From: Anastatus disparis
Taxonomy: Eukaryota > Arthropoda > Insecta > Hymenoptera > Eupelmidae
Assembly (NCBI GenBank): GCA_017163975.1
Contig: JAFFSR010000220.1
Location: 18,804,001-18,868,000 of the forward strand
Direction of reading: 5' to 3'
DNA: 64,000 nucleotides
Each line of letters begins with the position of its first letter. Position 1 is the first letter of the stretch. Of this stretch, positions 5,071-60,139 are shown piece by piece. Position numbers and translations under genes: made by a program. The notes beneath the pieces were generated by a model. The model had not been told where the DNA came from and ran no database searches. It was given only the letters and a program-made list of their open reading frames with translations.

Positions 5071-5291
5071 TTTTTTTTTTTTTTTTAACATCGCTATATT
5101 TATGCTATGCTATTTTTGCTATGCTAATCAGCGACGGAGCTTGTAAGTGTGTTTGTGAAAAAAGCACATGTAACGTACTACAGTGGTGCTTGTATCAATC
5201 GCGGCTGGCGAGAGCGGGATTCGAACTCAGAAACTCGAGATTACGAATCCAACGCTCTACCGACTGAGCCACTCATCGGCTCAGTCGTGAT
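5071..5291 (-). mobile_element. tRNA-derived SINE, copy 1, with target-site duplication
   Basis: Head with pol III box A and box B-like sequence, body with GCACATGTAACGTAC and CGACGGAG, and an A-rich tail (T-run on the plus strand). ATATTTACTTTT occurs at both edges (5063-5074 and 5292-5303), a 12-bp target duplication that fixes the borders. Its body tail (CTATGCTATTTTTGCTATGC) is slightly rearranged. Confidence 0.85.
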
Positions 5292-14602: not shown

Positions 14603-17194
14603 GAAAATACTTATTCGTTCATTTAAAAATAATAATCATTATTAATTTTTTTATTCCATTGTTAATTTAAAATAAATTATTTCGGATTCAAATATAAACG
14701 AATTATAAAATGCGATGAGTATTTCTTTTATTTAAGAAAACGAATATATTTACAGTGAGATGGACTTATCAAAAAAAATCGTTAAGATGACGATTTTATT
14801 AAAAATTTTTTTAAATTTAAAATTCATTTCCGTTTTAGAAAATAATGTATGATTCATTCTTATTAATATTAAGCACATTAACAAAAATTAAATCAGCAAT
14901 CAAGCAATTTTTTATGAGTTTTATTAAAATAATTATATTTATATTTACATGTAAAACGATAGTAGTTATAACATTTTAATGTTATAACTAATATCGTTTA
15001 ATTATTGTAGTAAAAGTTACCTTGATAATTTATAAACGTTAAAAAAATAAATACATTTTTAATTAAGCGTTAGCATGATAGTTAGTTAAAAAATAGGAGC
15101 GATAAAATGGTATAACACATACATAAAACCGATAAAAGAATTACAGATGTAAAGAGAAAAAATATTATGAGAAAGAAGATAAAGAAAACAAATTGCTTCA
15201 AAATCCCTCGGGCTTTTTGCGGCCGTTGGTTAGTTGGTTTAGTTCTTCCCTTTGAACTGAAAAAAATGTGCGCGGGAAAAATAAATCCACGGAGAGAATA
15301 AATTTTTAGTATCTTTGCAATATCATAATTGAGGAAAACATAAATATATTATTTTAGTGTGAAAAATTTTATTTTATTCTTAAAATATAACAAATTTTGT
15401 ATTTAGTATATTTGTTTTACGAATATACGCAAAGATTAAATCTTAACATTTATTGTGTAATTACAATTTTAATTTTAAATTATTGAAATTTAGGTAAAAT
15501 TTTTATATTTTTATCAAAATTGTTAAGAAAAATTGATAATTTAAATAAATTCAAATTATATAAAAAGCAATCTTAATTTCTATTCATTATTATTACTAAA
15601 AATCCGTAAATTATCGTTTATTATTTATATTAAATTTTATATTTTATAATGTTTCTTACACAATTATTTTGAAATATTATATATTATTACATTTTCATGT
15701 TCTACAGTATTCTCATGCCGCAAATTATAAAAAATTATGTATTTATTTTGGCGGATGTATGAAATTTGAAAAATTACAATATGTAATATTTGTAAAAAAT
15801 TTTCCATTGTAATATTAACTTTGTTATTTTTAATAAATTATTTTAAAATTGTTTCAAAAAAGTTCTAAATTTTTTTACGTAATTCACATTGAAATAAAAT
15901 AAGTAAAATTGTTAAATGTTGAGAAACTATAATAAAATCCATTTTTTCCTCGGGAGAAATATGCAACTTTATTCCTTCGTTGTATAATGTACAATTATAT
16001 AAGAAATATCAAGGATTTTTTAAACTACAGTAAACAATCATAATCTTTTTTATTTATATAGTAAATGAGTGATAGAGTAGAAAAAAATTTAATGAAAAGT
16101 GATAATACAAAAGTTTTTATTTTCTTGTAGTAGATATTTGATATTAAGAATGAAATTATATTATTAATCTTCTTCACAGTTTTTTCTATATATTATCTTA
16201 TATAAAAAAAAACACGTGATTAATTAATAAGTAAATTTTTCTTTACATTACTGCAGAATTAAATAAATTTGTATCAAATGTCGGCTTTTGAAGTTGAAAA
16301 TAATTTTGATATTAATATAGACAGTAATTCGCCTTTAGAAGCTTTTACATTGTTCTGATTTTTTTTTTATTTTGATCATAATTTAGATGTTCGTAGGTGA
16401 AACGTTTAGAGCTCATATATTATGAAACAAGCTTGTCACTCGTTTATCTTTTCTATAGTGGTAGGGACATAAATAAGCGCAAAGCTTTCAGTAAAAATGT
16501 ATGTTCTAAGCATATTGCACTTAGTTTTAAATCAATGACCAAAGTGAGTGAAAAGTCAAATAAAATGTTGCGTAAGTGATTTTTTCTACAATCATTACAA
16601 TTGTCTCTTTTTGGAATAATTTTGTATCAATATTTTGATAATTATTCGATATTTAATCATTAAATTCAAACTAATTTTAATAAATGATTTAAAAAATCAC
16701 TCTAAATGTTTACTCCGTTTTTTACACTCTTTCTTTTATGGTAAACTGTGATTTATTTTAAGCCTCTTTCTTAAAATTAAGCAATACTTAAATATAATAC
16801 TTATATATCTTTAATATTAACAATAAATAACATATTTTTAAAAAGTGATGAAAATAATTCGTAATGATTTGAAAGGTGCAAAAAAAAAAAATAATTTCTA
16901 TATTATATATTTATTATTATAATTAATATATATACTTGAATAATTGGTAATTTTATATAGGTAAATAAAATAATGCCAATATTTAATTTTTTTGTAAGAT
17001 TGTTGTTATTAATTATTAAAAACATTTGTACTATTTATCATTTTTCAAAAAATCATGTAATTTATGATCTCTCAAAAGTTTTGCCTTTGATTTTAATAAA
17101 ATATCTCAATATTTTTATTAATTTATGTTGAAATTTTTTTAATGTAATAAAAATGAGTGAAGTACTAATAATATTATAAATTACTATTGTGATT
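14603..17194. other. AT-rich DNA upstream of the peroxidase exon
   Basis: Searched for a first exon with ATG and a phase-1 donor. The only nearby fit (ATG at 16848, ending before a weak GTGCAA donor) is not convincing. The true first exon may be here or further upstream. Confidence 0.4.
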
Positions 17195-17196
17195 AG

Positions 17197-17765
17197 GTTT
17201 TATTATACTTTTGAGCGTTTCTTTGGTTGTCGTTAACGCTGACGAAGCTTTCAACCAGGATACAGATTGGCAAAAGGCAGATACTATCTACCAATTTCAT
17301 GCTCAAACTATTGATGGCAAGGATGTTTCGTTTGAAAAATATCGCAATCGCGTTGTAATTGTTGTCAATGTGGCAAGTAATTGCGGCTTAACAAAGCCAA
17401 ATTACGAACAACTCCAGAGTCTTTATGAAAAATATGAAGGACAAGGCTTGAGTATCATGGGATTTCCAGCAAATGATTTCGCAAATCAAGAACCAGGAAC
17501 TGCTGAAGAAATTTCAAATTCTATGAAAACTCGCTTCGGTGTCACTTTTGATATGTATAATAAAGTTCAAGTGACTAAAGAAGAAAACTGTCACCCCTTC
17601 TGGAAATATCTTAAAACACGAGATACAGGATCAGGCAATTCCGGTAAAGAGATTGTATGGAACTTTACCAAATTTTTAGTTGATAGAAATGGAAAAGTAG
17701 TAGCAAGATTTGAGCCAGCAACTAAACCATTTGATATGGAAGATACTATAAAAAAATATTTATAA
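17197..17765 (+). CDS. Secreted phospholipid-hydroperoxide-type glutathione peroxidase, 3' (main) exon
   Basis: Glutathione-peroxidase fold enzyme, expected to reduce hydroperoxides with a thiol donor. The exon is open from 17193, follows an AG acceptor at 17195-17196, and enters in phase 1 (the first codon is split). No ATG lies in the open frame, so a 5' exon is missing. The exon begins with a hydrophobic stretch (FIILLSVSLVVVNA, then DEA) typical of a signal-peptide core and cleavage site, so the protein is probably secreted. Counting the TTG at 17211 as residue 1, the peroxidatic Cys is C58 in NVASNCGLT, the place of selenocysteine in vertebrate GPX4. Gln93 (NQEPG) and Trp150-Asn151 (WNF) complete the tetrad. 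FPANDF carries Ala where the family usually has Cys (FPCNQF). The helix after QEPGT (EEISNSMKTRFG) lacks the resolving Cys found in Drosophila-type enzymes. The only other cysteine is C127 in NCHPFW. Stop TAA is at 17763-17765. No AATAAA precedes the foldback element at 17961; AATATA at 17839 is a possible variant signal. Confidence 0.9.
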
Positions 17766-56200: not shown

Positions 56201-57949
56201 ACTTTTTTTTTTCCTTGCTGATATATTTTTATGATTATCCTCGTACTGAAATTTTCCAGGCTTATTTTCTTTTCTAGCGTCCAATATACTTGGCAATATA
56301 AGAGATATTCACTTATACTAAAGGAGTATATTGCATCTAAAACTAGATGGAGCGATATTTTCCTTCTGAATCTTTATGTCAAAAGTATTTTATGCGAATA
56401 ATAAAAAAAAATAAAATAGTGAGCCGTGAAAAAAAATATATTCATGTCTTATAACAAATAATATTAAAAAATATTTGCATAAACTAAAACTACAGTTTTT
56501 TAATATTTTTAGTCTAAAAATTTTAACTATATATTTTTTTTTTGTTTTTAATTTTTTAATACGATTAACTAAATTTTTTTATCTGAAACGAAATATCTTA
56601 TTGTGAGTAATAACTTTCTAATGCAACAATAATAGTAATAATAATGATAATAATAATGTAAAGTAAGTGCTTACTAATCAATAACAAAATAACATCTCCT
56701 CGATATTAGTTCATAAATTTAATAACGTATGCTTTCCCGATTTACCGATCAACGCAGATTATGCTAATGAGCAAATAATCCGATTAAGATATTAGTAACG
56801 GTAGGAGCATCTGGAGTTTGATCGGTAGCCAATTCTCTCTTTTCTTTTCTTCTGTCTTCCTCTTATAATGCCTTTATAAGTCTTTGGCTTATAAAAATTA
56901 TTCTTTTATCTTTATCTTCTTGTTTTTTTACATATAAATTTATTCTTTTTTTTTTAATAATAAATTTGTGAAAATGTTAATAATTTAATGTTAACATGTA
57001 TACGAACAAAAATTCCGATAATAAATTACAATCTTGTATGAGTTTTTATCTTTTTTTATTATTATTGATTATTTATTGTAAAATCACTTGTAATGACTAT
57101 TTTAACGTCTTATACCACTTATATATGTTTTTTATAAACATTTTTTACTTTAAATGAAATAAAACTTGAAATTTAAATAGAAATTTGACTAAAATAATAA
57201 AGTTACTTTTCAGTTATTTATATGGAAGAGTAAATATGCAAAAAGGAAAATACAGTTGTAATAATTAAGTCATTAACTTTGCTCTTATGGTAATTTTTAA
57301 TAATCATACCAAAGAAAGTGGAAACCATTAAAGTGCAGTAATATTAAAAGTACTAATATAATGAAAATATTTTCTGGAAATTTTTAAATTTTTAAGTGTA
57401 CTGATTTGATCTTTAATAGGACTGCCGATTATATTTCCCATATTAACTCTCTAGAGGTTTTATAATTGAAACAAACATTTTACTGAATGATAAAAGTTCG
57501 AAATCTGTAATTCTCGTAAATTTGTGATTAAGCAAAAAAAATTCAGTTGTGTAATTTTCATTTCGAGCAAATCAGCTAATTAAAAAAAAGTATATCGGTT
57601 TTATTTATTCAAATACTCAATATGTTCATGTAATCATTATTGTCATTAATTGTATACATGCGACATAAGCTCATAATTTCGAGGCGAATGGAAATTTTAA
57701 ATTTAGAATTACAAAGCTTTTCAATACGTTTAAATCGTATTAAAAATGTTCGTAATATCATAAAATTAATGTTACGAATATTTTTATAACATCAATGTTT
57801 TGATAGAAAAATGAACGGAAAGAAAAATAAATACATATAACGATGATAAAAATTTACTATCTACAGACTACAAATTACATAACTAATGATAAGATTTGAT
57901 GCTAATTATGAAAGAAATATTGACACAAATACATATGTTAAATAATAAT
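53291..57949. other. AT-rich non-coding DNA
   Basis: A GC-richer patch at 53490-53760 with overlapping minus ORFs that lack ATG or domains, a CACGGAAA/TTTCCGTG inverted pair at 53332-53374, and an ATG ORF at 54801-54989 with no recognisable features. Confidence 0.4.
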
Positions 57950-57955
57950 TTTATT
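57950..57955 (-). terminator. Poly(A) signal AATAAA for the four-cysteine peptide gene
   Basis: AATAAA on the minus strand, about 115 nt past the TAA of exon 3. It is the first canonical signal I see downstream of the stop. In a genome this AT-rich the hexamer also occurs by chance, so the support is positional. Confidence 0.45.
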
Positions 57956-58069
57956 AATGTAAATTACTTGTTATATTACAGTGCAGTAAAAAGGAATGAA
58001 TGATTTTTAATTATTTTACAGGAAAAATTTACAACTTTTGCTAATTGATTTGATGATATTTACTGGTTT

Positions 58070-60062
58070 TTATGAACCTCCTTCAACACAACTGAAAAAT
58101 AAAATAAAATATATCATTAATAATTTTTTAATCAATTAAAATATCAACGAAATTAATAGTTTTATCTATTTTTTATTTTATTATACTTATTAAATGATCT
58201 ATAAGTTATCAATAAATAATCATCATTAATACAAGTCAAATTTTTGCAATATTTGTTAAGTCAACAATGGATTATTTTAAAATAAAAAAATTATTACTAA
58301 TTATTAAATTAAAATAAAATTTTTCTCTTCAAATTAATTTGTGTCTACTAATATTTTTACACTTTTAGACGTGACAGGGAAGTCAATAAAATATTTTTAT
58401 CATCGAAAATGAGATAAAACGTATCTAATCATTATGTGTAACATTATTTTTTCATAATCATGTTTTCATAATAACGTTTTTTCAACTTGAAAATTGAGAT
58501 TTTAATTTTTATATATTTACGTAAGTAATTAAAATTCATTATCAATATGAAAATAATAAAACAGACTTACTCTATTCCGGTGACAGTTAGTCCATATGAT
58601 TGCTCGATGCATTGGTAATCTTTACATTTTTTACTTTCTTTCCTGGCTGTTTCGGCAACTTTTTCACAAGCAGCTTTATCCCAATCAGCTGGTGTAAGAT
58701 CTACTCCTATGAATTTTTTTAAAATTTTAATTAAACTCATTAAAATAAAAAAAATCTTCTGTTTAAATATTTATTAAATTTTTAGGGCTAATTTTTTTTT
58801 ATAATGAACATCGCTGTTTATTAAATTACTGATTATATGGAATTTCGATAATCATTGTTTCATTTAATTTAAGAAATCTTTTTATAATGCAAATTGAAAA
58901 TAGCACCATTTAAAAATATTAATACATCTTTTTTTTTTATATTTTAGTCCTATCAATCATTTTTAGAACAGTATCTAGAATAAAATATTATAATATTTAT
59001 TATTAATAAAAAAATGATGCACCAAATCCAACTAAAAAAAATACACTTTGGTGTCATTTGGTGCATCATTTTTTAAATATTTTTAATTTTTATTTAACGT
59101 CGCTAATTAGCGACGGAGGTTTCTCAGTGTGTTTGCGATCAAAGCACATGCATTGTATACAGTGGTGCTCGTACAAATCTTCCGAGAGCGGGATTCGAAC
59201 CCGAAACCCCGAAGATTACGAATCCACCGCTCTACCGACTGAGCTATTGAGACCTCGGGAGAGAAACTTACAAAATCACAAAAATTACTATACTACTAAA
59301 TAAAAACATCGTTACAATCATAGTAAAATTTAGTATAATTGTAATAATGTTTGTGGTAAAACACCATATTTATTAGAAAACTCAGACAAGAAAAAATTGT
59401 AGGAACAAAAAGAATCTTAATTGAAAATAACTTTTTTATTTGATTATATTTTCAATTATTATAAAACTTTGAAAATCTTTTATTAATTTTTCATTACACT
59501 CATTGTTATAATATTCGAATTATTTGAACAATTTTCGTTTTCTGAAATTGTAAAATTTACAGAAAGTGTTGATGGGTACGTAATGGGTAAAAATTATTGT
59601 TTTAATTTGAAATGTTTTTTTTTGTATTACAGAAAGAGTATTTTATAAATATTAATTGAAGTGTTCTTGCAGTTTTTTTTCAGTTTTTTCATACTAAAAT
59701 TTTCTGATATATTATATGCATTTATTTATTATTATATTTAATATTTACAACTGACTCCAAATACTCAAAAAGGAAAATAAATAGTGGATAATAACTACCT
59801 ATATAGTAAATATTTAATTAAAGTCTTATTTAAATAATTTAAAATTATTACAGTTTTTATAGAAACATTAATAACTAAAATATAGTACACGAAGTTTGAA
59901 AAAAATTTAAAGTACTCTTCATACTATATTATTAACAAATAATATAAAAACTGAACAAAATAATTAAAAAATAAAACAAAAAAACAAACCTCCGTTACTC
60001 GTTGGTTTACTCAAAACGCAAACGACGAGCGCCAGCGTCAAAAACACTATTGCGTATTTCAT
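58070..60062 (-). CDS. Three-exon gene for a small secreted four-cysteine peptide (76 aa), unrecognised family
   Basis: Exons on the minus strand: 60062-59990, 58706-58571 and 58091-58070, giving 231 nt with the stop. Exon 1 starts at ATG with good signal-peptide structure (MKYAIVFLTLALVVCVLS, likely cut before KPTSNG) and ends at donor G|GTTTGT, phase 1. Exon 2 follows acceptor ATAG|GA and encodes GVDLTPADWDKAACEK and then a lysine-rich segment (KESKKCKDYQC), ending at donor GA|GTAAGT, phase 2. Exon 3 follows acceptor TTTTTCAG|T and encodes DCVEGGS and TAA. The joined frame stays open through both junctions. The mature part has cysteines at residues 38, 52, 57 and 71, spaced 13, 4 and 13, which suggests two disulfides in a small, probably helical, extracellular peptide. 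Intron 1 (1,283 bp) carries a SINE and a hairpin; intron 2 is 479 bp. A TATA box lies about 70 bp upstream and AATAAA about 115 nt downstream of the stop. I do not recognise a family; venom, salivary, reproductive or immune secreted peptide are all possible. The splice model is inference from sequence alone. Confidence 0.75.
59009..59074. repeat. Hairpin AAAAATGATGCACCAAAT next to a SINE
   Basis: Arms of about 19 bp (ATGATGCACCAAAT and ATTTGGTGCATCAT plus A/T extension) around a loop of roughly 28 bp. It lies in intron 1 of the four-cysteine peptide gene, directly beside the SINE tail at 59084. Confidence 0.6.
59084..59256 (-). mobile_element. tRNA-derived SINE, copy 9, internally deleted (extended-flank pair)
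   Basis: Lacks about 30 bp between AACGTCGC and TAATTAGCGAC. The head is well kept (GCTCTACCGACTGAGC). It shares GAGCTATTGAGACCTC and about 100 bp of flank (to about 59352) with copy 8. Lies in intron 1 of the four-cysteine peptide gene, on the same strand as that gene. Confidence 0.87.
59257..59352. repeat. Flanking block shared with 53195-53290
   Basis: Partner of the block beside copy 8: GAGAGAAACTTACAAAATCA, CAAAAATTACTATACTA, AGTAAAATTTAGTATAATTG, TAATAATGTTT. It carries a short insertion (CTAAATAAAAACATC) relative to copy 8. Confidence 0.7.
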
Positions 60063-60130: not shown

Positions 60131-60139
60131 TTTATATAT
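60131..60139 (-). promoter_or_regulatory. TATA box of the four-cysteine peptide gene
   Basis: The minus strand reads ATATATAAA here. A TCA initiator-like triplet lies about 25 nt downstream (around 60115-60113), which would give a leader of about 50 nt before the ATG at 60062. Spacing and order fit a TATA-type insect promoter for a highly expressed secreted product. Confidence 0.6.

What the first reader, a model, noticed from the sequence alone, without database searches (positions are those of the whole stretch)
58070..60062. Previously unseen three-exon gene for a secreted four-cysteine peptide
No single ORF reveals this gene. Joining a signal-peptide exon (60062-59990), a middle exon (58706-58571) and a tiny last exon (58091-58070) through GT-AG sites gives an open 76-residue protein with a TATA box, a poly(A) signal and cysteines spaced C-X13-C-X4-C-X13-C. 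The symmetric 13-4-13 spacing suggests a helical hairpin locked by two disulfides. I do not recognise the family; a lineage-specific effector such as a venom, salivary or seminal peptide is possible.
Basis: partly seen in the sequence, partly recalled or inferred. Interest (0 to 1): 0.82.

Follow-up and report, generated by a model that had tools for sequence, protein, structure and literature searches.

The report
Unknown small secreted wasp peptide gene
The sequence very probably holds a real but unrecognised three-exon wasp gene for a small secreted peptide with four cysteines; what the peptide does is unknown, and genes of this general kind are common in wasps.

Summary
Joining 60062-59990, 58706-58571 and 58091-58070 (minus strand) gives an open 76-residue precursor: signal peptide, then C-X13-C-X4-C-X13-C. 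It is the best-scoring signal-peptide three-exon model in the window (39.4 bits; best unrelated 22.0) and in 264 kb of its contig (best unrelated 27.6), once splice cut-offs are loose enough to admit its weak first intron. None of 600 simulated windows reached it; 6 of 1500 keeping local composition did. GC break points lie 1, 1 and 9 bases from three predicted borders. The genome is hymenopteran, perhaps chalcidoid. No homologue was found and exon 2 has no second match in the 939-Mb genome; distant relatives could be missed. Best reading: a taxonomically restricted, acidic, two-disulfide secreted peptide acting outside the cell; tissue and target unknown. A likeness to half an SVWC/Vago domain fails that family's eight-cysteine test.

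The parts
60131..60138 (-). TATA-box candidate TATATAAA, 68 bases before the ATG
   Evidence: density 0.27 per kb per strand, so moderately unusual at this place; that it is the promoter is inference
59990..60062 (-). exon 1: ATG, signal peptide (probable cleavage after S18, VLS|KPT by the -3,-1 rule), first base of a split codon (phase 1)
   Evidence: GC 0.45 against 0.18 in the following intron; change point 59989
58707..59989 (-). intron 1, 1283 bases, phase 1; holds a tRNA-derived repeat
   Evidence: donor 1.7 bits and acceptor -0.5 bits, both weak
59090..59300 (-). tRNA-derived SINE-like repeat inside intron 1 (approximate borders)
   Evidence: Rfam tRNA match 59187-59247, 33.8 bits; blastn finds 8 further places in the window
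58571..58706 (-). exon 2: mature peptide core with C38, C52, C57
   Evidence: GC 0.40; change points 58707 and 58562; one match, itself, in the genome
58092..58570 (-). intron 2, 479 bases, phase 2, donor AGA|GTAAGT, acceptor TTTTTCAG
   Evidence: acceptor 4.7 bits; GC 0.17
58070..58091 (-). exon 3: last base of the D70 codon, fourth cysteine C71, VEGGS, stop
57950..57955 (-). AATAAA poly(A) signal candidate; ATTAAA at 58011 is another
   Evidence: AATAAA occurs 3.68 times per kb here, so weak evidence

Best explanation
A real hymenopteran gene, apparently without a close copy, with three coding exons. It is transcribed from the TATA box near 60138, spliced twice, and makes a 76-residue precursor. 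Signal peptidase removes about 18 residues, and an acidic peptide of 58 residues (6.2 kDa, pI 4.9) is secreted. A helix packs on a two-strand hairpin, stapled by two disulfides, most likely C52-C71 across the open end of the hairpin and C38-C57 between helix and hairpin. It works outside the cell by binding a protein partner, as a taxonomically restricted secreted effector (of venom, reproductive tract, saliva or haemolymph). Shown from sequence: frame, borders, signal-peptide pattern, cysteines, composition breaks. Inferred: transcription, splicing, cleavage, fold, disulfides, role.
For: Exact frame and GT-AG borders; best model in the window and in 264 kb; 0 of 600 and 6 of 1500 simulations as good; composition breaks at the predicted borders; codon-position GC 0.51/0.43/0.30, with the same falling order as the GPx gene of the window, 0.47/0.33/0.27; hydrophobic core 3.24 on the hydropathy scale with a fitting cleavage site; four cysteines in the mature part; helix-strand-strand model of exon 2, pLDDT 72.7, in which C52 and the place of C71 would lie opposite each other (my inference from the printed strand limits; no coordinates were read and C71 is not in the model); acidic pI 4.9.
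Against: No transcript, no relative and so no conservation test. Both splice sites of intron 1 are weak, and with strict site cut-offs the model is not found at all. The stricter null is reached by 6 of 1500. The fold covers exon 2 only, rests on one sequence, and the five models range from pLDDT 72.7 down to 47.8. The mature part holds the basic pairs RK and KK between the first two cysteines, so processing into smaller pieces is not excluded. No evidence bears on tissue or target.
Confidence: 0.6

Rival explanations
1. The gene is real but the reader's model is not its main product: exon 1 or the start of exon 2 differs (acceptor 58688, or another first exon), or intron 2 is often retained, giving a form with three mature cysteines.
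For: Weak donor 1 and acceptor 1; acceptor 58688 scores within 2.3 bits; the stop TAA overlaps donor 2, directly after the GAG codon.
Confidence: 0.2
2. [quoted passage not shown]
For: The stretch C-KDYQ-C-IEQSYGLTVTGID-C resembles a block of SVWC domains as I recall it; a strand hairpin there would fit. Both points rest on memory, not on a test.
Against: SVWC domains have eight conserved cysteines (PMC13115929, passages; PMC11169590, passages); here there are four, and no open stretch with three close cysteines lies within 2.6 kb downstream. No Pfam match to it at E 10.
Confidence: 0.1
3. Not a working gene: a chance arrangement, or a decayed gene, in AT-rich sequence.
For: 6 of 1500 composition-keeping simulations score as high; no relative and no transcript; weak intron 1.
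Against: 0 of 600 simple simulations, nothing comparable in 264 kb of real sequence, no stop or frameshift in the joined frame, composition breaks at the borders.
Confidence: 0.12
4. An antimicrobial peptide of the cationic kind.
For: Short secreted proteins are enriched among infection-induced genes of Nasonia (PMC3873987, passages).
Against: Net charge -2.3 and pI 4.9.
Confidence: 0.08

Closest known systems
Taxonomically restricted short secreted proteins of wasps (for example uncharacterised infection-induced Nasonia genes, PMC3873987, passages; two venom contigs of Torymus sinensis without similarity to known proteins, PMC7930282, passages)
   Same: Secreted, no recognised relatives, hymenopteran; short in the Nasonia set
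   Different: No expression data here, so no link to immunity or venom can be shown
SVWC/Vago-like proteins (PF15430)
   Same: Secreted; C-xxYx-C followed by a hairpin-like stretch and a cysteine (resemblance recalled, not a test)
   Different: Four instead of eight cysteines; no profile match
Cystine-stabilised alpha-beta peptides (defensins and relatives)
Alpha-hairpin peptides (recalled: two C-X3-C pairs)
   Same: Two disulfides, symmetric cysteine spacing
   Different: Spacing 13-4-13, not 3-n-3; the exon 2 model is not a helical hairpin

Membership tests
SVWC / Vago-like (PF15430) | Eight conserved cysteines forming four disulfides | tested here: not met
   Four cysteines in the mature peptide; family definition from PMC13115929 passages
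SVWC / Vago-like (PF15430) | Match to the Pfam profile | tested here: not met
   No match listed at E up to 10 with precursor, mature part, C-terminal part or exon 2; HMMER filters can hide weak matches
SVWC / Vago-like (PF15430) | Shared intron positions with SVWC genes of the same genome | not tested
   The genome search gave no answer in 18 tries with this family (first, last)
Secreted small protein | N-terminal signal peptide with fitting cleavage site | tested here: met
   Rule-based test inside the scan (charged n-region, 10-residue hydrophobic core 3.24, small residues at -3 and -1); SignalP was not available
Cystine-stabilised alpha-beta fold | C-X3-C helix joined to C-X-C strand (recalled) | tested here: not met
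   Cysteine spacing 13-4-13
Cystine-stabilised alpha-beta fold | Fold match | tested here: inconclusive
Chemosensory proteins | Four cysteines C-X6-C-X18-C-X2-C in about 100 residues (recalled) | tested here: not met
   Spacing and length differ; no Pfam match
ETRAMP (PF09716) | Score above the Pfam gathering cut-off 29.1 | tested here: not met
   14.7 bits, E 0.031, with the precursor; no match with the mature part
Venom, salivary or seminal peptide | Expression in the gland concerned | not testable with these tools
   No expression data

The most novel reading that the evidence does not exclude
The gene founds an undescribed family of two-disulfide helix-strand-strand secreted peptides of a wasp lineage, born recently in gene-poor, repeat-rich DNA and used as an effector on another organism or on the mate.
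Probability: 0.15. Interest if true: 0.5.

Novelty: new member of a known kind. Interest (0 to 1): 0.3.

Why it matters
Short multi-exon secreted peptides are easily missed by annotation, because no single reading frame shows them. A confirmed case with no relatives would add to the stock of wasp-restricted secreted proteins, among which immune and venom effectors are found. By itself it answers no open question.

Tried and rejected
Homologue searches: 5.8 billion proteins with the precursor and with exon 2 allowing longer proteins, both without a candidate sharing three 5-residue words; PDB sequences, none at E 10; Pfam and NCBIfam, only the sub-threshold ETRAMP row; phages by tblastn, 7 records at E 1 to 4, chance; IMG/VR, 11 stretches matched a pattern and none was confirmed. 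Pfam at E 0.1 on six frames of the whole window (alignments A1-A3, 30 of 30 chunks) found the GPx gene and its overlapping thioredoxin-like families only; short exons can be missed so. Fold search of the exon 2 model gave nothing significant. No paralogue was seen within 264 kb or for exon 2 in the genome. A search for a missing cysteine-rich second half downstream found nothing convincing; a half split over several exons would escape it. A strict splice scan did not find the gene. A 14-residue likeness to exon 2 inside intron 2 (58257-58216) is at chance level. Papers: four word searches for this peptide or its kind and one for SVWC; of four papers passages only were seen, of the others listings with abstract starts.

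Full report
What is there. On the minus strand the window reads ATG at 60062, a signal-peptide exon to 59990, GT at 59989, an AG before 58706, an exon to 58571, GTAAGT, TTTTTCAG, and a last exon 58091-58070 ending in TAA. Joined, these give 231 bases and the 76-residue precursor MKYAIVFLTLALVVCVLSKPTSNGGVDLTPADWDKAACEKVAETARKESKKCKDYQCIEQSYGLTVTGIDCVEGGS. Cysteines 38, 52, 57 and 71 are spaced 13-4-13; a fifth, C15, lies in the signal peptide. The mature part, if cut after S18, has 58 residues, 6183 Da, pI 4.9 and net charge -2.3.

Is it more than chance? The cause is intron 1: donor 1.7 bits, acceptor -0.5 bits. The same cut-offs on 600 order-2 Markov windows gave at most 22.4. On 1500 simulations that keep dinucleotide composition per 500-base block, and so keep GC-rich islands, 6 reached 39.4. 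In 264 kb of the contig the next unrelated model has 27.6 bits.

Further support. Exon GC is 0.45, 0.40 and 0.36; the non-SINE parts of the introns have 0.17-0.18. A change-point fit on GC alone, in stretches laid around the predicted borders, puts the breaks at 59989, 58707 and 58562, against predicted borders 59990, 58706 and 58571. Besides the repeat in intron 1 and one window near 56725, the only 136-base windows of the 56-60.6 kb stretch with GC of 0.397 or more lie at exon 2 and at exon 1 with its leader. The GC break upstream of the ATG was not clear (gain 1.9). The TATA box is moderately, the poly(A) signal hardly informative in such AT-rich DNA.

What organism. The GPx gene at 17211-17765 has its best relatives in chalcidoid wasps and ants (which genera are chalcidoid is my own knowledge); in a tree of 28 chosen relatives (of 608 found, 120 listed) its place is unresolved, with chalcidoids nearest by path and a long branch. 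The genome has 939 Mb in 399 contigs, and the window is C218:18804001-18868000.

Relatives. None in 5.8 billion proteins under the three-word rule, in the PDB, Pfam (ETRAMP below its cut-off), NCBIfam or IMG/VR. The protein database does hold many wasp proteins, so the absence says something, but the method misses diverged short peptides. In the own genome exon 2 matches itself only, as DNA and as protein. A whole-peptide search of the genome did not complete.

What it most likely does. A short, acidic, disulfide-stapled secreted peptide without known relatives fits the general class of taxonomically restricted secreted effectors of wasps. In Nasonia, 42.24% of infection-induced genes without homology evidence for immune function carry a signal peptide against 15.95% of non-induced, non-immune genes (PMC3873987, passages), and two Torymus venom contigs have no similarity to known proteins (PMC7930282, passages). 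The acidic charge speaks against a cationic antimicrobial. Basic pairs (RK, KK) lie between the first two cysteines, none near the ends of the mature part. I cannot choose between venom, reproductive, salivary and haemolymph roles.

SVWC idea. The C-terminal half resembles, from memory, part of the SVWC/Vago domain. The eight cysteines that define the family (PMC13115929, passages) are not met and no profile match was seen, so it is not filed there. The decisive comparison with this genome's SVWC genes could not be run.

Verdict. Real gene very likely, exact ends of exon 1 and start of exon 2 less sure, function open. Ordinary in kind; modest interest.

Noticed in passing
59090-59300 and 8 further places (near 5123, 7964, 14338, 20007, 31653, 39891, 48804, 53043): A tRNA-derived SINE-like repeat family, about 77-83% alike over the longer pieces, with a tRNA match in Rfam at 59187-59247 but none by ARAGORN; one copy sits in intron 1 of the peptide gene.
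   Followed up: partly
58216-58257: Inside intron 2, same strand, NKYCKNLTCINDDY resembles exon 2 SKKCKDYQCIEQSY (6 of 14 identical, C-X4-C-I kept); at chance level, frame closed just upstream. Decayed exon copy or chance.
   Followed up: partly
17193-17765: Glutathione peroxidase (PHGPx-like) gene with a cysteine in the NCGLT motif, a hydrophobic start and a long branch in the tree.
   Followed up: partly
58990-59093: Inverted repeat of 47-base arms, 77% complementary, 10 bases apart, next to the SINE in intron 1.
   Followed up: no
L013 (window coordinates about -6686 to -299) and L016 (about -39022 to -34013): Outside the window: gypsy-like gag-pol reading frames, and lipase-like frames (names from memory).
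   Followed up: no
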